A stretch of DNA of 33,361 nt from Candidatus Aenigmatarchaeota archaeon. GTDB taxonomy: Archaea > Aenigmatarchaeota > Aenigmatarchaeia > CG10238-14 > SCSR01. Of the stretch, positions 24,077-33,361 are shown piece after piece. Both the position numbers and the translations under genes were made by a program. Location: NCBI GenBank assembly GCA_016198705.1, contig JACQIA010000047.1, forward strand, positions 1 through 33,361. The letters run 5' to 3'. The notes below the pieces were generated by a model, which was not told the DNA's origin, searched no databases, and saw nothing but the letters and a program-made list of their open reading frames with translations. Within the stretch, counting starts at the first letter, position 1; each line of letters starts with the position of its first letter.

Positions 24077-24398
24077 TTTATCAAGTCTAGCAAACCTCAG
24101 GCTCTTAGTAACAGCGGGCTGAACATCTCGGACGAATCCTTGATGCGTACACCCCTGTCCTATCAATCACATCGTCTATGTGGGCCTTCGTGCTACTACC
24201 GATTCTTGCGAACCAGCAGTAGCAATGACTGACTATTTTTCCGAATGGTTTCGAGCTTAGATGCTTTCAGCTCTTATCCATGTATGGCTTAGCTGCCCTG
24301 CACGCAATAACGACAGGTACACCAGAGGCCACGGGGGGATGTTCCTTTCGTACTTGTCCCTCCTTCCGGTCAGTCAATCAACACCTCTAATAGATAGC

Positions 24399-24432
<34 letters not shown>

Positions 24433-24559
24433 AGCGTCCCCTTTTAACCAGTGGACACCTGTACCCTTGGCTGCTGCTGCACAGCCAGGAGAGGGGGAGC
24501 CGACAACGACGCACCAACGCGCCGGGTCAATGTGGGCTTTCACCGGCCACGGGCCCATT

Positions 24560-24691
24560 TTGGGGGCATCGGTAAAGATGACTCTACCATGTTACCTTGG
24601 TGAGCCTATGGCCTTGAACGTCTTTTTCGATCCGTAGAACTACTACAACAGTTCAACTGGGATAGATGATGGAAAATACTCCACCGATGCT
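24560..24691 (-). other. BHB intron in 23S, peptidyl transferase centre (132 nt)
   Basis: The conserved ACCTCGGGGATA is interrupted right after U2449 (E. coli numbering) and resumes with the helix-89 region. Central helix GGGG/CCCC, bulges ATA (24693-24691) and AAA (24561-24559), inner helix GCATCGGT/ACCGATGC. Splicing gives GGGGAT-AATGGGCC, keeping A2450 and A2451. The canonical form GGGGATAACAGG is one base longer, so the exact 3' cut or nearby bases are uncertain. Confidence 0.78.
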
Positions 24692-24835
24692 ATCCCCGAG
24701 GTAACTTTTCTTATACCACCGACAGCCATTAAGGCCGTTCGATGTATCGCTAACCCATGCTTTCGCAGCTGAATCCCTTGCTTTTCGGGATACAGTCAGC
24801 CCAACTTTTGCGTTTACACTCTACTCCGGATTTCT

Positions 24836-24928
24836 TGCGGGCAACAAATGCCTATATTGTTCATTAGTTACCTCCCTACTCATCTTTTTTCATACTGGAA
24901 TGGTTTAATCATCACCAGCACTTGCTGT
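24836..24928 (-). other. BHB intron in 23S, domain V near E. coli 2300-2315 (93 nt)
   Basis: Central helix CGGG/CCCG, bulges TCA and CAA, inner helix CAGCAAG/TTTGTTG. Cutting after the second base of each bulge joins CCGGGTC to AGAAATCCGG, restoring the archaeal hairpin GGGTCAGAAACCC almost exactly. This junction is strong support for the BHB reading of the whole locus. Confidence 0.88.
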
Positions 24929-25132
24929 GACCCGGATGAGTTGAGCTTTGGGATTCCTTGATATCTTCTCAAGGAAGTACCACCCCAGCCGAACTGCCCA
25001 TCTGACGTTGTCCTATTGCTAGTAAGCAACACAGTTTTGAAAGGGTAGTGTTACACTTTCCTCTCAGCTTTCGGCCGAAGCCTAAGCCTTAGCGAGTACT
25101 ACCTACTCTATGCAACCAAAACCGTATCGCAG

Positions 25133-25163
<31 letters not shown>

Positions 25164-25167
25164 ACGT

Positions 25168-25204
25168 ATTGGGTTATCGAGATAGATAATTCTACATCAA
25201 TAAT
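25168..25204 (-). other. BHB intron in 23S near E. coli 2054 (37 nt)
   Basis: Central helix TGGG/CCCA, bulges AAA and ATA, inner helix beginning TTATTGA/TCGATAA with a longer imperfect stem beyond. Splicing gives AGTGGGAA-ACGTAGACCCC, the same length as CAGCAAGACGGAAAGACC up to that point. In that alignment 2057 is C and its partner 2611 is G, a compensated pair, and 2058 is G as in other archaea. Confidence 0.75.
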
Positions 25205-26675
25205 TTCCCACTAGAGGTCTCTGGCCTATTCACCAGAAAAGCAATTTCGCTGGGTACCAACCCAAGACAGCGGGCAAGTCGTTAAGCCATTCAGACAGGC
25301 CGTTAATTAAACGGCAAGGGATTACGCTACTTTACGACAGTCAGAGTTACTGCCGCCGTTTACTGGGGCTTCTTCCTGTTGAAACAGGGCTTGACACACC
25401 AGTACTGGGCAGGCATAAGAAACTGTACTCAAGCTTTCGCTTTAGCAGTCTCCATCGTTTTTGTTAAACAGTCGCTTGCCCCTTGTAACTGTGGCCTGCT
25501 ACTAGCAAGTAACAGGCATGGCTTCTAGCGAACATACACCACTAATTTGCCGATTTCCTTAGATTGGGTTCTCCCACTCCACCATTGCCTTCTCAGCAAC
25601 TCCACCTGTGGCGGTTCTCGGTATGGACATGAAGGATCCTTGCAAATTCCCTTTTCACGGGCTCTCGGAATCAGCCGAACTCTGCATACGCAGAGCTGTT
25701 CCTGCATTCACCTGCTTCTCCTCATTACAAGACTCCGCAGGCTTCAGCAGTTAACTTGCGTCAGCTCATCCAAAAGCGTCAGGAATTTGCCTTGTGTTGC
25801 CACACGTACCTTCATGGCACCGGAATATTAACCGGTTTCCCATCAAGTACTCCAGTTGAGGGTACCTTTAGAGATCAGCTAACTGCCAGCTGATGAACAT
25901 TGCTGGCAAACCCTTGGAGTTTAGGCGACTGGGAATTTCACCCAGCTCTGTTGCTACTTTTGGCAGGATCTTCAATTCCACACGGTCCACTTCTGCTTAC
26001 GCAGAAGCTTCTATCCATGCAGAACGCCTCCCTACCCCTGCTTTCGCAGTCTAGGGTATCGGTATTTAGCTTAGTCTCTTCCATCTTCAGGGCCAGAATT
26101 CTCGGTAGCTAAGCTGTTACGCATTTCTTAGCTGATGGCTGCTTCTGAGCCTACAGCGCTACTGTCTGAGAATTCCAACTCCCTTCTTCGTTTAGCTAAA
26201 ATTTAGAGACCTTAACCTTAGGTTGGGTTGTTCCCCTTGTGGATGCCGAGCTTACCCCAGCACCCTCACTCCCGCCTTCTACGCTTGTACCTGGTTCGGA
26301 GTTTGACAGGACAGCTGAACCTTTCGGTCCTTGACAATCCAATCAGTAACTCTACCCAAATACATAGCTCTGGCGAGGCTGCACTAACATGCATTTCGGG
26401 AGGAATCAGCTATCCGGCGTCTCGTTAGGCTTTTCACCACTAATCCTAACTCACCCGAGAGGATGTCAGCCCATCACCGGTAGCAGGCTTCCATCTCTCT
26501 TTCGAGAGACTTCGCCTTGGTCAGGATTAGATCGACGCCCTTCGGATCTTGCCCTAGTGATTTCCCGCCCTTTCAGACGGTGTCCCATTCTCGCGATACG
26601 GACAATTGCTTTCGCTTTGGTTTCATGGCTTAAACCACTTAACCTCACCACTAAGACAAACTCCCTGCCCCGTGT

Positions 26676-26724
26676 ATTTCGTTAGAGGAAATGAAGAAAC
26701 AACAATACTTACACTTCATCTAAT
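26676..26724 (-). other. BHB intron in 23S, domain II near E. coli 675 (49 nt)
   Basis: Central helix TTCG/CGAA, bulges AAA and ATA, inner helices TTAG/CTAA and ATGAAG/CTTCAT. Splicing joins CCGTTTCGAA to ACACGGGGC, restoring the conserved hairpin CCGTTTTGAAACACGG just before CAGGGAGT. Confidence 0.86.
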
Positions 26725-27356
26725 TTCGAAACGGACGCTATGACCCTGTAAGCTGCTTTTAGTTGCCTTCAAGCAGCACCTTCCGAGCCATAGCTGACTA
26801 ACTCCATCTTGGTTTCAGGCTCTTTTTACCCGGCTTTCGCCGTACTTTTCAGCTTTCTATCACTATACTAGTGCGCTATCGGACTCTACACATATTTAGA
26901 GTTGCCAGTTAATGCCTGGCAGATTCCTGCTCCATATCCAAGGAACAGTATTCAGGATACTTGGAATCCTCTTTCCACCCTTCCTTTACGGGGCTATCAC
27001 CCTCTTAGGCAGAGCTTTCCAGCTCATTCGAGTCGGCTGGTTAAGAAGTACCCAAGTCCTACTACACCACATCCATCCATAATTTCTTATGGCGTTCGGT
27101 TTGCTCTGTTTCCCTTTTACTCGCCGTTACTAAGGAAATCTCTATTGGTTTCTTTTCCTGCGGCTACTAAGATGCTTCACTTCTCCGCGTTCCTTTTCCT
27201 TTCGGAATTGGCCGAAGCCAACGAATCGCATTCAGATATCCCAGGGTCAAAACCTCCTTGCGGTTAACCTGGGCTTATCGCAGCTTGGCACGTCCTTCGT
27301 CAGTGTATAGAGCCGAGCCATCCACCAAGTGGATACTGTTGACTAGACCTTTTGAC

Positions 27357-27793: not shown

Positions 27794-28123
27794 ATGGATT
27801 TTACGACATACCAAAAAGAATCAAGAAAAACAGCTACGTATCCGAAGATAGGTTATAATTTTGTGTATCCTGCTTTGGGTTTGGCAGGTGAAACTGGAGA
27901 AGTCGTTGAGAAAATTAAAAAATTAATCCGTGATAAGAATGGTGTTGTTGATGAGCGTGTTAAATTAGAAATTACTAAAGAACTAGGAGATGTTCTGTGG
28001 TATTTGAGTCAGTTGGCGACAGAATTAAATTTGTCTTTGGATGAGATAGCCAATGAAAATTTAAAGAAATTATTTTCAAGAAAGGAAAGAAATATGATAC
28101 ATGGCGATGGAGATAACAGGTAG
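27794..28123 (+). CDS. MazG-like nucleotide pyrophosphohydrolase
   Basis: I choose the ATG at 27794, five bases after AAGGAGTGA, which complements the visible 16S 3' end; an upstream GTG at 27785 overlaps that site. The 109 residues are all-alpha with GLAGETGEVVEKIKKL (E33, E36) and KELGDVLWY (E63, D66), the magnesium-binding E-x2-E...E-x2-D set of MazG-type NTP pyrophosphatases, which clear non-canonical nucleotides. It is encoded against the rRNA direction and ends one base before the tRNA 3' end. Confidence 0.88.
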   Translation: MDFTTYQKESRKTATYPKIGYNFVYPALGLAGETGEVVEKIKKLIRDKNGVVDERVKLEITKELGDVLWYLSQLATELNLSLDEIANENLKKLFSRKERNMIHGDGDNR

Positions 28124-28195
28124 TGGACCGATCGGGATTTGAACCCGAAGCCTCTTCCTTGCAAGGGAAGCGATCTACCGTTGATCTATCGGCCC
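28124..28195 (-). tRNA. tRNA-Ala (anticodon UGC)
   Basis: Acceptor GGGCCGA/TCGGTCC, D-stem GATC/GATC, anticodon arm CTTCC-CTTGCAA-GGAAG with TGC, and T-arm CGGG-TTCAAAT-CCCG fold without mismatch. The discriminator is A, CCA is not encoded and there is no intron. A TATA-like CTTTAAATCC at 28219-28228 lies about 24-30 bp upstream, so the tRNA has its own promoter. In many archaea this tRNA sits in the 16S-23S spacer; its place before 23S is a trace of that order. Confidence 0.96.
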
Positions 28196-28240
28196 GTAAT
28201 TTTAGATTACTATAATTGGGATTTAAAGATTTAGAGTAAT

Positions 28241-29632
28241 TCAAGGATATCCTGGATATGACGGGATAGATATACCACAATCAGCTGGATTTGATCGGCA
28301 GAAACTAGTGCATTCTTCGTATGATTGTATCCCACGAGCTTTGCACGCTTCTTGAGCTGAGCCAGAGGAACCCCCCGAAACATCTGGAGGAGGAATTTTA
28401 GGCACAGGAATTCCACACGCTTCTGGATTGGACTTGCAAAATTCAGTGCAAGCTTCTATTGACATCCCAGACTTTCTGCACGGTTCAGGTATTTTAGATA
28501 TGTCTGGTATAGATACTCCATATTCTTTTGCAAACGGTTCACACTCAGTTATATGTGCAATATCTTTACAATAAACTTCGCATTCTTGTTGACTTTTACA
28601 CCCACCCGGACCACCCTGTTCTAAGAACTTTTTACCAGCAGCTCCATATTGTTTTGCCTTTTGGTATTCTTCTTCACTTATAAAACCAGCCACTTTTGCA
28701 AACTCCGTGCATTCTACGAAAGCTTCGTCTTTGTTACAGTAATCTCTACAATCCTTTTCAGTCTTACACCCGCCAGGACCTTTGAAACCAACTTTTGCAA
28801 ATTTCTTGAAATTTTCGACCTCTTGTGCAGACATCACACCTTTTTCCAACATAAATGTAGCACACACATCTAAATTTTCCTCTTTTGCACAATAGTCTGT
28901 GCAAGCTTGTTCTGATTTACACCCACCCGGACCACCATTGACCCCAAATTTCCTTGCATTTTCCGCGTCTTCTTTACTTATGAATCCATATTTTTCAGCA
29001 AATGATAGGCATTCTTCAGCATGCGACGCGTCAGCACAATATTTCTCGCAACTTACCTTTGTTGTGCACCCTCCTGGCCCCTTTCCACCTACTTTTCCTG
29101 CGAGTTCGGCCTCCTCTAGGGTGATAATTCCAGCCTCCGTAATGAACTTCAAGCATTCGCCAAAACGACTTTCTTGTTCAAAACAGTACGCCCTACATTC
29201 ACTTTCTGAGTAACAACCACCTGGCGTAGTCCCAGCCTTTAAATAAGAAATCATTGCCCTTCCGTTATGAGCAAGCCTTTCTGAAATTATCCCATAAGAC
29301 TCTGCTAAATCCACACATTTTCCAAGGTTATCTGGATTTTCACAATATTTGCTGCATTCTTCGAAACTGGCGCAATTGCCCAATTCTGCAACAGGATATT
29401 TTACAATGTCCTCAAATTCATTGTACTTTAAATTATGCTTTTTTGCAAACGCAATACAATCCTTACTATTAGCTACATCATCACAGTAACTTGCGCATTG
29501 CTCATAACTCTTGCAATTACTCAGTTCCTTAACCGGATATACTATATCGTCAACAGATGTTGCAAGCGCATATGAAAAAGCAACTATTAAGAAAACCGTT
29601 GCAACAACTAATTTAATAAGATTAAATTTCAT
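28241..29632 (-). CDS. Secreted cysteine-rich protein with nine repeats
   Basis: I start at the ATG at 29632; a GTG at 29641 overlaps the upstream stop (GTGA) and is possible. A signal peptide (MKFNLIKLVVATVFLIVAFS, then YALA) is followed by about nine repeats of 33-57 residues with four cysteines: C-x5-C-x3-C-x7-9-C, then a helical FA-x3-G segment. Most begin GPGGC. The last two repeats are shorter and separated by Pro/Gly/Ser linkers. Cysteines are probably paired in disulfides outside the cell. Similar repeats occur in proteins of small-genome archaea and bacteria, but no function is known to me. Confidence 0.85.
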   Translation of the reverse strand: MKFNLIKLVVATVFLIVAFSYALATSVDDIVYPVKELSNCKSYEQCASYCDDVANSKDCIAFAKKHNLKYNEFEDIVKYPVAELGNCASFEECSKYCENPDNLGKCVDLAESYGIISERLAHNGRAMISYLKAGTTPGGCYSESECRAYCFEQESRFGECLKFITEAGIITLEEAELAGKVGGKGPGGCTTKVSCEKYCADASHAEECLSFAEKYGFISKEDAENARKFGVNGGPGGCKSEQACTDYCAKEENLDVCATFMLEKGVMSAQEVENFKKFAKVGFKGPGGCKTEKDCRDYCNKDEAFVECTEFAKVAGFISEEEYQKAKQYGAAGKKFLEQGGPGGCKSQQECEVYCKDIAHITECEPFAKEYGVSIPDISKIPEPCRKSGMSIEACTEFCKSNPEACGIPVPKIPPPDVSGGSSGSAQEACKARGIQSYEECTSFCRSNPADCGISIPSYPGYP

Positions 29633-29637
29633 AAAAA

Positions 29638-29871
29638 TCACCGAAATGGATTCCTATAATCGAACGGATTTATATCGAAGGCACTTGTAACGCTTTCAAT
29701 TGGCTCTGAAAGTTCCGAAACATAGTCTAAATTTCTAAATGGATTAGATGATACAATTGAGTAAGCATCCTTTTGACCACTCGAGCTATATTGATACAAA
29801 AAATACCCTGCTATGATAATTCCTACTAGAACTAATAAAATGATAATATAATTTAGCTTGGTTTTTGGCAT
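29638..29871 (-). CDS. Small membrane-anchored protein (77 residues)
   Basis: I use the ATG at 29871; an in-frame start at 29931 would add 20 residues and a second hydrophobic stretch. A lone membrane helix (about 8-26, IIILLVLVGIIIAGYFLY) precedes an outside tail rich in S, N and F, with NPFR occurring twice (SSNPFRN and YRNPFR at the end). It overlaps or abuts the Cys-rich gene and is probably co-transcribed. No family recognised. Confidence 0.6.
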   Translation of the reverse strand: MPKTKLNYIIILLVLVGIIIAGYFLYQYSSSGQKDAYSIVSSNPFRNLDYVSELSEPIESVTSAFDINPFDYRNPFR

Positions 29872-29996
29872 ATCTAATAGAAATATGGGATTTTTTACTT
29901 TTATTATTAATAAATAGCTATCAACAAGCACTTTTCTATAACTAAAATTTAAGGATTGAAAAAGATATTATTATTCTTAATTGCTATAGTTAATTC

Positions 29997-30533
29997 ATGA
30001 AACATTTATTTGTTTTACCAATTTTGGTTGCGGTTTTTCTAAGCGGTTGTGTAAGCCAGTATCAAGCTACTCCACCACCAGCTGAAGAATCAAAGCAAAC
30101 TACACAGGAAACTATTAAAGAATCACCAACTACAGAGCAACAAACTTCTTATTTTGGAAAAATTATCGCAGGCACTACCACAAAATATCTTCGGTTCAAC
30201 AAAGCCGATTACCAAAAAGCACTTAACGAAGGAAAAGTTATCTACTTCTATTTTTATGCGAATTGGTGCCCCATCTGTGCCAAAGAGAGACCAAATATTT
30301 TGGCAGCATTCAATGAATTGAATTATCCAAATGCAGTAGGGTTTGAAGTCCATTTCAATGATAACGAAGTCACTCCCGATGACGAAGATATATCGAGACA
30401 ATTCGGCATATCCTATCAACACACATCGATTATCCATGTTGTTGGTGTTGATAAAACTGGAAAGGAAGCTTTCAGAAGTTTACAGCCTATATCCAAAGAA
30501 ACAATAAAAGAAAAAATAGCGAGCTTGGTGTGA
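29997..30533 (+). CDS. Thioredoxin-fold lipoprotein
   Basis: The N-terminus MKHLFVLPILVAVFLSGC is a lipoprotein signal with C18 as the likely lipid site, then a Pro/Thr/Glu-rich linker to about 52. The thioredoxin fold follows with active site W-C91-P-I-C94 in VIYFYFYANWCPIC and a cis-Pro-like region lacking the usual Pro (YQHTSIIHV). Such proteins handle disulfides outside the membrane. Its TGA overlaps the CcdA start by one base, so CcdA is the likely electron donor. The Cys-rich protein nearby is a possible substrate (inference). Confidence 0.88.
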   Translation: MKHLFVLPILVAVFLSGCVSQYQATPPPAEESKQTTQETIKESPTTEQQTSYFGKIIAGTTTKYLRFNKADYQKALNEGKVIYFYFYANWCPICAKERPNILAAFNELNYPNAVGFEVHFNDNEVTPDDEDISRQFGISYQHTSIIHVVGVDKTGKEAFRSLQPISKETIKEKIASLV

Positions 30534-31246
30534 TGGCAGAAATAACAATATTAATCGCGCTAGTTGCAGGTTTTGTATCATTTCTCTCACCATGTATTTT
30601 GCCATTGATACCAGCATTTTTGGCATATTTGTCTGGAACAAGTATCGATGAAGCTAAACAAAATAAAGCAAAAGCCAGACTGCATATTTTCTTGAACACA
30701 ATATTTTTTGTTTTGGGATTCGCTGTTGTGTTCTCTTTGATAGGAGTTCTTTTAAACAGCGTTTTGACGTCAATAGCATACGATTTGAGAATTTGGCTTT
30801 CTAGAATTGGAGGAGCAATAATTATTGGATTCGGTCTGTATCTTTTGGGAATTTTGAAATTATCATTTTTGGATGTTGAGCACAAGATCAAAGTAAGAAA
30901 ATTCAGATACAATTATCCTACATCATTTTTATTCGGTGTTGCTTTTGCTGCCGGATGGACGCCTTGTGTCGGTGCTGTACTAGGAAGCATTTTAACATTG
31001 GCTATAACTTCACCTGGGGTAGCATTTAGTTTATTGCTTGCTTATTCAATTGGGTTGGGAATACCGTTTCTTTTAACTGGAATTTTCACAGCACAGGCAT
31101 CATCATTTATCCAAAAAGCCGGACCAATTTTAAAATATTTCAACATTGTAATGGGTACAGTCTTGATAATTTTAGGAATTTTGGTTTTCACCAATAAAAT
31201 TTTTGAAATTGCTGTATTTCCAATAACATTAGAAATGCTTAATTGA
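30533..31246 (+). CDS. ccdA: CcdA-type membrane thiol transporter
   Basis: I use the ATG at 30533 (TGATG overlap with the lipoprotein stop). The 237 residues form six membrane helices in two related halves with the key cysteines in FLSPCILPLIPAFLAYLSG (half one) and AAGWTPCVGAVLGSIL (half two). CcdA passes electrons from cytoplasmic thioredoxin across the membrane to extracellular thioredoxin-like proteins, matching its neighbour. Length and motifs are typical of the short CcdA form. Confidence 0.93.
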   Translation: MAEITILIALVAGFVSFLSPCILPLIPAFLAYLSGTSIDEAKQNKAKARLHIFLNTIFFVLGFAVVFSLIGVLLNSVLTSIAYDLRIWLSRIGGAIIIGFGLYLLGILKLSFLDVEHKIKVRKFRYNYPTSFLFGVAFAAGWTPCVGAVLGSILTLAITSPGVAFSLLLAYSIGLGIPFLLTGIFTAQASSFIQKAGPILKYFNIVMGTVLIILGILVFTNKIFEIAVFPITLEMLN

Positions 31247-31266
31247 TGAAATAATAAGTTGATGCT

Positions 31267-31578
31267 ATGAATGGCTTCGTTAAAATTGCAACAACCGATA
31301 AATTAACTCCAGGAAAAATGATTACTGTAAAGATAAATAATGTTGAAGTAGTTGTGGGAAATAACAACGGAAATTATTTTGCAATGGAGGAAATTTGCTC
31401 ACACGAAGGCGGGCCGTTGCATGAGGGGTATTTTGAAAATTCGTTTGTAGTTTGTCCTTGGCATGCTGCAAAATATGATGTCAAAACTGGTAAGGCAGAT
31501 GCATCAACACCATGGGGGAAAAAGCAAAAAATATTCCAGGTGAAGATAGAAGGAAATGATATTTTAGTAAAAGTTTAA
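31267..31578 (+). CDS. Rieske-type [2Fe-2S] ferredoxin
   Basis: The 103-residue soluble protein has both cluster motifs, C44-x-H46 (ICSHEGGPLHEG) and C63-x2-H66 (VCPWHAAKYD), ligating one Fe2S2 cluster. It lacks a membrane anchor, so it is a cytoplasmic ferredoxin like those serving oxygenases and reductases. It starts 20 bp after ccdA and probably belongs to the same transcript; the partner enzyme is not visible. Confidence 0.92.
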   Translation: MNGFVKIATTDKLTPGKMITVKINNVEVVVGNNNGNYFAMEEICSHEGGPLHEGYFENSFVVCPWHAAKYDVKTGKADASTPWGKKQKIFQVKIEGNDILVKV

Positions 31579-31731
31579 TTGATTTCCAATGGTGCTTTTG
31601 AAGATCTGGTATTAATAATAAGGTTTCCCACTACACCATCGCCTGAAACTTAGATAAGTAATAGTTAATTTGATTGTAAAATCCCCCTCATCTATCTAAT
31701 CTTAATTTCTTTTCTGGATGTGAAGAACTAA

Positions 31732-32574
31732 TCATGATGATGAGTAAATAATTTGTCTACCTGCGCGGACTCTCTTAATCATGCCACTATCTGCTAAGCC
31801 TTTCAATTTTCTCTGAATTCTATAATGAGGAGATTTCAAAAGCTGTATAAGTTTAAACATTGAACAAGGCTCTTTTTTAAGAGCACTTAAAATTTCTTCC
31901 TCCGAAGGTATCTTTTCACTTTTGTATGTCTTTATGATTATGTCTAATTTTTGAGTCTTTTCCATATCAACAAATCCGATTAGTGATTTGAACTTTTCCA
32001 AATCTTTAACATAAAAATAAAAATCATCCTTTTTCATATCATGCTTGACTTTAGGTTTTGTGCACTTAATTCCCAATTCTGATAGAATCTTGTGTACAAC
32101 TCTAACAACTTTCAATCCTTTATCATCCTTAACCTGTTTGAATTCTATTTTACCTTTTAGATCTACCGAACCTTCTGCATCAAACAGACCTTTAACAAAT
32201 TCAATTTTTTCAGACCTTGTTTTATGCATTATTTTTTTATAGAATTCGCTAAACTGTGTAGCTGTTTCTTTCGAAGAAATCCTAATTCTAAGTTTTTCAA
32301 ATGTTGCATTCCAAGGACTTGAATTTGGTCTTAATTTAATTTGTACTTCTGGTATATCCAAGATTTTACTCCATTTTTCTTTATCCGCTGTTAACGAATA
32401 CACATCTACCATTATTCTATCAACTGGAAATTTTAATTCCTGCTTTATAGATTTGGCTACCTCTTTTAAGATAAATTTAGACGAATTGTAAACTTCCACA
32501 TGTCTATCATCTAAATAACCGTCTCCTATAGTAATTCCTACTAACCATGCTGGAATTGTTGCGACTACAGACAT
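31732..32574 (-). CDS. Free-standing LAGLIDADG homing endonuclease with C-terminal winged helix
   Basis: Two LAGLIDADG motifs occur: WLVGITIGDGYL (10-21) and FVKGLFDAEGSV (126-137), each with the catalytic acidic residue, so the protein is a one-chain, two-domain nuclease. Residues about 212-280 (EEEILSALKKEPCSMFKLIQ and SPHYRIQRKLKGLADSGMI) are a winged-helix DNA-binding tail. It is not inside an intron: it starts about 120 bp after the 16S 3' end with its own TATA box. LAGLIDADG enzymes spread archaeal rRNA introns, so a link to the seven introns here is likely but unproven. Confidence 0.88.
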   Translation of the reverse strand: MSVVATIPAWLVGITIGDGYLDDRHVEVYNSSKFILKEVAKSIKQELKFPVDRIMVDVYSLTADKEKWSKILDIPEVQIKLRPNSSPWNATFEKLRIRISSKETATQFSEFYKKIMHKTRSEKIEFVKGLFDAEGSVDLKGKIEFKQVKDDKGLKVVRVVHKILSELGIKCTKPKVKHDMKKDDFYFYVKDLEKFKSLIGFVDMEKTQKLDIIIKTYKSEKIPSEEEILSALKKEPCSMFKLIQLLKSPHYRIQRKLKGLADSGMIKRVRAGRQIIYSSS

Positions 32575-32595
32575 ATTTTATATTCTGCAGTATAT

Positions 32596-32605
32596 ACTTA
32601 TAAGT
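32596..32605 (-). promoter_or_regulatory. Palindromic TATA-like element of the homing endonuclease gene
   Basis: ACTTATAAGT is self-complementary and lies 22-31 bp before the ATG at 32574, the right place for a leaderless transcript. Confidence 0.55.
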
Positions 32606-32734
32606 TTAACTAGAGTAAACTTCCGATGCTTTCAGAAATTGTTGTAGGCAAGGTTGATATTTGATGCCTTTGAGGTAGGAACCTCGCACAAAATTAAGGA
32701 GGTGATCCAGCCGCACGTTCCCGTACGGCTACCT

Positions 32735-32767
32735 AAACCAAGAGACTAGCAATAAACTAAATCTCTT
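32735..32767 (-). other. BHB intron in 16S between A1502 and A1503 (33 nt)
   Basis: Central helix GCCA/TGGT (one G-U), bulges CAA and TTA, inner helix AGAGA/TCTCT. Splicing joins GTCGCCACA to AGGTAGCCGTA, matching the conserved GTCGTAACAAGGTAGCCGTA in length and in all but two bases. Confidence 0.85.
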
Positions 32768-32777
32768 TGTGGCGACT

Positions 32778-32893
32778 TTAGGCTCCCGGAAGCTCATTTC
32801 TAAGCAATCAATTCACCTCCGACTCATCATTAAATCAGAGTCAAGCCATTTTATCATCTTTGCTTTAACTTTTCGTTTCGAACTTCCAGAGAT
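32778..32893 (-). other. BHB intron in 16S between A1492 and A1493 (116 nt)
   Basis: Central helix GGGC/GCCT (one G-U), bulges TAA and AAA, inner helix TCTC-(T)-GGAAG/CTTCCGGGA. Splicing joins GAGGGGCTA to AGTCG, giving the archaeal GGGGCTAAGTCG. No ORF of note is inside. Confidence 0.87.
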
Positions 32894-32957
32894 TAGCCCC
32901 TCTTGCGGAAGATCAACTCGACTATTGCTAGCCTCGATGAACTTCCACTCGATTGGC

Positions 32958-32994
<37 letters not shown>

Positions 32995-33003
32995 GGCGAA
33001 CGA

Positions 33004-33035
33004 TTTCACATAACTATAGATTACTCTACAGCATT
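33004..33035 (-). other. BHB intron in 16S helix 43 (32 nt)
   Basis: Outer helix GGCGAA/TTCGCC, central helix TCAC/GTGA, bulges TAA and AAT, inner helix with CTGTAG/CTATAG. Splicing yields TGTCACTATCG, identical to the archaeal helix 43 consensus, followed by GAATACGTCCC. Confidence 0.88.
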
Positions 33036-33361
33036 TAGTGACATTCGCCTACTAGGGATTCCGGCTTCATGAGGATGAGTTACAACCCTCAATCGGAACT
33101 GGGCGTGCTTTTAGGGGATTTGCTTCTCCTTTCGGAGTTGCATCCCATTGTGGCACGCATTGTGCAGCGCGTGTGGCCCAGGAAATTCAGGGCATACTGA
33201 CCTACCTTCGCCCACACCTTCCTCTGGTTTATCACCAGCGGTCTCGCATGAGTGCTTGCCTTCCGAAGAAAGCAGTAGCAACATGAAATGTGGGTCTCGC
33301 TCGTTAACCGACTTAACGGCACGCCTCACGGTACGAGCTGACGATGGCCATGCACCACTTC

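What the first reader, a model, noticed from the sequence alone, without database searches (positions are those of the whole stretch)
31732..32574. Free-standing LAGLIDADG-winged helix nuclease beside the intron-rich 16S
All seven introns are too short to encode a nuclease, yet a two-motif LAGLIDADG protein sits about 120 bp from the 16S 3' end with its own promoter. It may act in trans to spread the small introns, leaving them free to shrink to near-minimal size.
Basis: inference. Interest (0 to 1): 0.7.

Follow-up and report, generated by a model that had tools for sequence, protein, structure and literature searches.

The report
Free-standing nuclease targeting neighbouring 16S introns
In an uncultured archaeon (phylum Aenigmatarchaeota), a DNA-cutting gene sits just after the 16S ribosomal RNA gene; its closest relatives lie inside 16S introns at the very site where this 16S carries two small, gene-less introns, so it probably helps those introns spread from outside.

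Summary
ORF 31732-32574(-) is an intact 280-aa, two-motif LAGLIDADG protein with a C-terminal winged helix. It starts about 122 nt after the 16S 3' end, beyond the 16S processing stem, and none of the rRNA introns seen in the window could encode it.

The new evidence is comparative. Only two close relatives (40-45% identity) were found. Both are encoded inside a 16S intron at E. coli position 1499|1500, in other families of the same archaeal phylum, Aenigmatarchaeota. The window's 16S has no intron at 1499. It has small bulge-helix-bulge introns 7 nt upstream (1492|1493, 116 nt) and 3 nt downstream (1502|1503, 33 nt), so both would interrupt the presumed target.

Among 73 Aenigmatarchaeota 16S 3' ends, the 1502 intron occurs twice (G000, G018). 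Both genomes carry a free-standing LAGLIDADG-winged-helix gene just downstream of 16S; two congeners of G018 lack both.

Best explanation: a free-standing homing endonuclease specific for 16S ~1499-1503 that mobilises neighbouring small introns and itself ('collaborative homing', known from phage group I introns). Cleavage is untested, and the co-occurrence rests on two genomes.

The parts
31732..32574 (-). Free-standing LAGLIDADG (two motifs, D18/E134 intact) plus C-terminal winged-helix protein, 280 aa
32597..32604 (-). TATA-like box CTTATAAG 23-30 nt before the ATG (putative own promoter of a leaderless mRNA)
   Evidence: sequence; inference
32647..32687 (-). 16S trailer that pairs with the 16S leader on contig C47 (processing stem); the ORF lies beyond it
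32697..33361 (-). 3' part of the 16S rRNA gene (model positions 983-1478), runs off the contig end
32735..32767 (-). 33-nt bulge-helix-bulge intron at 16S 1502|1503 (H helix GCCA/UGGU, bulges CAA and UUA); shared only with G018
32778..32893 (-). 116-nt bulge-helix-bulge intron at 16S 1492|1493 (H helix GGGC/GCCU), carries a conserved C/D-box-like sRNA element
32768..32777 (-). Exon AGTCGCCACA (1493-1502) between the two introns; contains the 1499|1500 position where the relatives' HEG-bearing intron sits (empty here)
33003..33040 (-). about 32-nt insertion in helix 43 of 16S (approximate bounds), probable small intron

Best explanation
The gene encodes a free-standing LAGLIDADG homing endonuclease whose target is the decoding-site linker of 16S rDNA, around GGGCTAAGTCGNNA^ACAAGGTAGCC (E. 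coli ~1490-1510; caret marks the approximate 1499/1500 region). Its sisters (G078, G136) are encoded in an intron at 1499|1500 and would cut intronless alleles there. In the window the gene stands alone about 0.12 kb behind 16S. The target is interrupted by two HEG-less bulge-helix-bulge introns, at 1492|1493 and 1502|1503, which would shield the host from self-cleavage. In a cell with an intronless 16S, a cut there would be repaired from this locus, copying the small introns and the downstream gene together (collaborative homing). SHOWN: ORF, motifs, predicted fold, phylogenetic grouping, intron positions, bulge-helix-bulge motifs that restore canonical 16S, and co-occurrence. INFERRED: cleavage, target, protection, co-transfer. 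Likely evolutionary direction: free-standing form first, later captured by the 1499 intron, because the free forms (G000, G018) keep the full winged helix whereas both intron-borne copies end prematurely at the intron's 3' stem.
For: Nearest relatives: among 156 genomes of the phylum, two score E~1e-130 and the next best E~1e-12. Both lie in 16S as GTCGTA^...HEG...^ACAAGG. Tree clade of window + G078 + G136 has 100/99 support; G018's free gene is its sister at 88/64. The 1502 intron is found in exactly 2 of 156 genomes by exact pattern, both with a free-standing LAGLIDADG-wHTH roughly 120-250 nt after the 16S on the same strand; Fisher p = 3.8e-4, or 1.1e-3 counting every downstream LAGLIDADG, N=73. 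Congeners G019 and G020 of G018 have an empty GTCGCAACAAGG site and no such gene downstream. All three genomes of the HEG clade carry the rare 1492 intron (3 of 7 carriers; p = 5.6e-4). Both 1502 introns are 33 nt with canonical BHB motifs and compensatory helix changes. Constraint on the window copy: private differences by codon position 0.33/0.17/0.52. Precedents: Pog.S1213 endonuclease co-converts the small intron S1205 8 nt away (PMC4496867); collaborative homing in phage psbA (PMC6083498).
Against: No cleavage data. The 1502 association rests on two genomes of one order, so shared ancestry or chance is not excluded, and the Fisher tests ignore phylogeny. The window's exon is GTCGCCACAAGG, two bases different from the relatives' GTCGTAACAAGG, so specificity may have shifted. 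The 1492 intron also occurs in four genomes without the gene (G044, G065, G087, G092). A third downstream nuclease (G037, other clade) has no intron at 1492-1502. Topology within the clade is weak (84/53).
Confidence: 0.6

Rival explanations
1. Intronless homing only: the gene spreads by itself by cutting the conserved 16S 3' end (or the spacer) of alleles that lack it. The small introns are unrelated passengers or merely provide immunity.
For: A third genome (G037) has a free LAGLIDADG of another clade behind 16S without introns at 1492-1502. Most small introns in the phylum persist without a neighbouring nuclease.
Against: The rare 1502 intron is found only in the two genomes with the LAGLIDADG-wHTH gene downstream, and the relatives' own intron site is 3 nt away.
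Confidence: 0.22
2. Relic: the HEG was left behind or moved out of a former 1499 intron and is now a non-functional or decaying remnant.
For: Closest relatives are intron-borne at 1499, and the window has no 1499 intron.
Against: The ORF is intact with both catalytic acids and codon-position constraint, has a plausible leaderless promoter, and a complete winged helix that the intron-borne copies lack.
Confidence: 0.1
3. Domesticated regulator: a WhiA-like LAGLIDADG-HTH DNA-binding protein that regulates rRNA or neighbouring genes.
For: WhiA is among the structural matches (Z 13.8) and shares the LAGLIDADG-then-HTH order (domain order of WhiA is own knowledge).
Against: Closer structural and sequence matches are nucleases (PI-PfuI Z 17.0 at 25% identity, I-DmoI 14.7); both catalytic acids are kept; distribution is sporadic, with intron-borne sisters.
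Confidence: 0.05

Closest known systems
I-DmoI / PI-PfuI two-motif LAGLIDADG homing endonucleases
   Same: Fold of two LAGLIDADG repeats, catalytic D and E in place; I-DmoI is an archaeal 23S-intron enzyme (own knowledge)
   Different: Free-standing gene; extra C-terminal winged helix; 16S 1499-region relatives
Pyrobaculum oguniense Pog.S1213 (HEG intron) and Pog.S1205 (small hairpin intron)
   Same: A 16S nuclease that mobilises a neighbouring HEG-less small BHB intron by co-conversion (PMC4496867); G078 and G136 repeat this layout at 1499 + 1492
   Different: There the nuclease is inside an intron; in the window it is outside every intron, behind the gene. The sites 1492/1499/1502 lie 3' of all 13 archaeal 16S intron loci listed in that paper
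F-CphI / psbA collaborative homing (cyanophage S-PM2)
   Same: Free-standing nuclease gene next to an intron-containing gene, with the intron interrupting the nuclease's site (PMC6083498)
   Different: Phage, group I intron, Endo VII-type nuclease; here archaeal chromosome, BHB introns, LAGLIDADG nuclease; activity untested
Group I intron at SSU/1498 in a Micrarchaeota genome
   Same: Same 16S hot spot (PMC6125680)
   Different: Self-splicing group I intron, not BHB

Membership tests
LAGLIDADG homing endonuclease (monomeric, two motifs) | Two LAGLIDADG motifs in one chain | tested here: met
   WLVGITIGDG and FVKGLFDAEG
LAGLIDADG homing endonuclease (monomeric, two motifs) | Catalytic acidic residue at each motif end | tested here: met
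   D18 and E134 invariant in the clade and aligned with I-DmoI/PI-PfuI
LAGLIDADG homing endonuclease (monomeric, two motifs) | Pseudo-symmetric alpha-beta-beta-alpha-beta-beta-alpha fold | tested here: met
   AF2 model pLDDT 79.8; Z 17.0 to PI-PfuI, 14.7 to I-DmoI
LAGLIDADG homing endonuclease (monomeric, two motifs) | Site-specific DNA cleavage and homing | not testable with these tools
   needs protein and plasmid substrates
Collaborative homing system | Free-standing HEG adjacent to the intron-bearing target gene, introns HEG-less | tested here: met
   HEG about 122 nt behind 16S; introns 33 and 116 nt
Collaborative homing system | Nuclease target spans the intron insertion site | tested here: inconclusive
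   target inferred from sister HEGs in the 1499 intron, 3 and 7 nt from the window's introns; not measured
Collaborative homing system | Intron and HEG co-occur; empty alleles lack both | tested here: met
   1502 intron and downstream LAGLIDADG-wHTH in G000 and G018 only; absent in G019 and G020; N=73, only 2 positives. For the 1492 intron the rule is not strict (4 carriers without the gene)
Collaborative homing system | Intron blocks cleavage of the host allele | not testable with these tools
   needs cleavage assay
Archaeal bulge-helix-bulge intron (1502 and 1492) | 4-bp helix between two 3-nt bulges; splicing restores canonical 16S | tested here: met
   1502: GCCA/UGGU, bulges CAA/UUA; 1492: GGGC/GCCU, bulges UAA/AAA; both restore GGGCUAAGUCGCCACAAGG (motif read by eye on the folds)
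WhiA (non-catalytic LAGLIDADG-HTH regulator) | Catalytic acids lost | tested here: not met
   D18 and E134 present; that WhiA lacks them is own knowledge

The most novel reading that the evidence does not exclude
Collaborative homing operates on archaeal BHB introns in ribosomal DNA: a chromosomal free-standing LAGLIDADG-wHTH nuclease mobilises near-minimal (33-nt) introns at the 16S decoding site. The phylum preserves the steps from free nuclease (G018, G000) and HEG-less intron to composite mobile intron (G078, G136).
Probability: 0.5. Interest if true: 0.75.

Novelty: new variant of a known kind. Interest (0 to 1): 0.58.

Why it matters
How tiny introns without any mobility gene persist and spread in archaeal rRNA is an open question. 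A nuclease acting from outside would explain near-minimal introns at this site. The series of states within one phylum (empty site, small intron alone, free nuclease plus small introns, nuclease inside the intron) makes the proposed route to composite mobile introns testable outside phages.

Tried and rejected
A single-sequence search of genome contigs and viral contigs found nothing; the three-sequence alignment refound G078 and G136 plus distant Hadarchaeota (23S-intron) and Woesearchaeota hits, and no viral hit. The HEG clade (E <= 1e-10) was not found in 371 genomes of the Woesearchaeota locus's phylum or 28 of the Hadarchaeota locus's phylum, and the 1502-intron pattern was absent from those 371. 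These searches lacked a positive control in those phyla. The initial thought that the 16S sequence GTCGCCACAAAG was damaged was rejected: GTCGCCACAAGG is the family's normal sequence. The idea that the ORF lies in an intron of the pre-16S was rejected by the processing stem. An insertion boundary for the gene could not be defined: in G035 16S is followed by tRNA-Ala and MazG within about 0.6 kb, while the window has the HEG plus four more genes in between. A plain fold of the 1502 introns with truncated flanks did not give the BHB as the minimum, whereas with slightly longer flanks it did. Sequence identity of the two 1502 introns alone is not significant (14 of 33, shuffle p 0.05).

Full report
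OBSERVATION. ORF 31732-32574 on the minus strand is open for 280 codons. None of 2000 shuffles of the region is open that long. It matches Pfam LAGLIDADG_3 (E 3.6e-10) and weakly several winged-helix families at its C-terminus. D18 (ITIGDG) and E134 (LFDAEG) align with the catalytic positions of I-DmoI and PI-PfuI. An AlphaFold2 model (pLDDT 79.8, pTM 0.78) contains two LAGLIDADG repeats followed by helices. Its best solved matches are PI-PfuI (Z 17.0), I-DmoI (Z 14.7) and WhiA (Z 13.8).

SETTING. The window holds the 3' part of 16S (minus strand, from the contig end to about 32697) and a 23S gene (24083-27350). The 16S 5' part is on another contig of the same genome. The gene starts about 122 nt after the 16S 3' end, on the same strand. 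The 16S leader (other contig) and trailer (32647-32687) form a -56 kcal/mol duplex against -27 on average for shuffles. The pre-16S therefore ends before the gene: it is free-standing, not intron-encoded. A TATA-like CTTATAAG 23-30 nt before the ATG and the lack of a Shine-Dalgarno sequence fit a leaderless mRNA with its own promoter; this is inference. The genome belongs to Aenigmatarchaeota, judged from the named records of the relatives found in the same phylum.

INTRONS. Comparison with intronless relatives shows introns in the window's 16S at E. coli 1492|1493 (116 nt) and 1502|1503 (33 nt), plus an insertion of about 32 nt in helix 43. The 23S has about three clear insertions of 37-93 nt. 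I could not confirm the number seven, but none is long enough for a nuclease. Both introns near the 3' end can form a bulge-helix-bulge motif whose cuts restore GGGCUAAGUCGCCACAAGG, the family's intronless sequence (folds; cut sites assigned by the usual rule for 3-nt bulges).

RELATIVES. In 156 genomes of the phylum only G078 and G136 carry close homologues (profile E about 1e-130; next best 1e-12). In both, the gene lies within 16S itself, in an intron at 1499|1500 (GTCGTA^...^ACAAGG). A maximum-likelihood tree puts the window protein and these two in one clade (100/99). The next sister (88/64, weak) is a gene in G018 that is also free-standing, about 245 nt behind 16S. The two intron-borne proteins end early, in codons supplied by the intron's 3' stem. 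The free-standing window, G018 and G042 proteins have the longer C-terminal winged helix. That favours free-standing as the older state, but the clade's internal order is poorly supported.

ASSOCIATION. In 73 genomes with a readable 16S 3' end, an intron at 1499 is common (24), one at 1492 rare (7) and one at 1502 very rare (2: the window and G018). An exact-pattern search of all 156 genomes found the 1502 intron in the same two only. Both have a LAGLIDADG-winged-helix gene directly behind 16S (p = 3.8e-4, or 1.1e-3 if a third downstream nuclease, of another clade, in G037 is counted). All three genomes of the HEG clade carry the 1492 intron (p = 5.6e-4). These tests ignore phylogeny. G018's congeners G019 and G020 have an uninterrupted GTCGCAACAAGG and no such gene downstream. 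The two 1502 introns are both 33 nt with compensatory helix changes, but primary-sequence similarity alone is borderline (14/33, p 0.05).

MECHANISM. Homing endonucleases of introns cut at or near the intron's insertion site, so the sister enzymes should cut near 1499|1500. In the window that position is 7 and 3 nt from the two small introns, which would destroy a LAGLIDADG-size site (typically about 20 bp; own knowledge). The arrangement matches collaborative homing, described for F-CphI and the psbA intron of a cyanophage (PMC6083498, PMC3984707), and extends the known archaeal case in which the Pog.S1213 intron's nuclease co-converts the small intron S1205 8 nt away (PMC4496867). G078 and G136 repeat the Pog layout (nuclease intron at 1499 plus small intron at 1492); the window is the trans version. 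Cleavage, protection and co-transfer are inferred, not shown.

NOVELTY. Archaeal BHB introns, LAGLIDADG nucleases and co-conversion of small introns are known. A survey of archaeal 16S introns lists 13 loci, the most 3' at 1391 (PMC4496867); a group I intron at 1498 is known from Micrarchaeota (PMC6125680). In the papers I could search I found no free-standing LAGLIDADG gene paired with BHB introns in archaeal rDNA; most subscription papers are not in that library. I therefore rate it a new variant of a known kind.

It is supported for the two introns that flank the inferred site, not for all seven. Small introns elsewhere in the phylum are plentiful without any neighbouring nuclease. The 1492 intron is not minimal, since it carries a conserved guide-RNA-like element.

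Noticed in passing
window 32778-32893 (-); also introns of G044 and G092 at 1492 and of G033, G036, G043, G045, G046 near 1512: These introns carry a strongly conserved C/D-box-like element (GATGATA..TGGCTTGACTCTGA..TGATGAGTCGGAGGTGAATTGA). Its two guide-like parts are complementary to 16S GTCAAGCC (about 1405-1412) and to the anti-Shine-Dalgarno TCACCTCC. The same RNA sits in introns at two different 16S sites.
   Followed up: partly
window 32768-32778 (-) and other members of the family (G034, G041, G044, G045, G046): The family's 16S reads GUCGCCACAAGG instead of GUCGUAACAAGG, i.e. U1498C and A1499C in the decoding site.
   Followed up: no
L086:1643-2221 (-), genome G037: A second kind of free-standing LAGLIDADG gene (192 aa, no winged helix), about 150 nt behind a 16S; its clade includes other 1499-intron nucleases (G033, G055).
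   Followed up: partly
L129:3453-3699 (-), genome G108: Group I intron within the 23S gene of an Aenigmatarchaeota genome.
   Followed up: no
L033:1164-1583 (-), genome G136: A 139-aa ORF with an HNH-like cysteine/histidine pattern appears to lie inside a tRNA gene interval between 16S and 23S.
   Followed up: no
window 28123-32700: The 16S-tRNA-Ala-23S order is split: HEG, Rieske, CcdA-like, thioredoxin-like and a 466-aa cysteine-rich repeat protein lie between 16S and tRNA-Ala; in G035 tRNA-Ala and MazG follow 16S within about 0.6 kb.
   Followed up: partly
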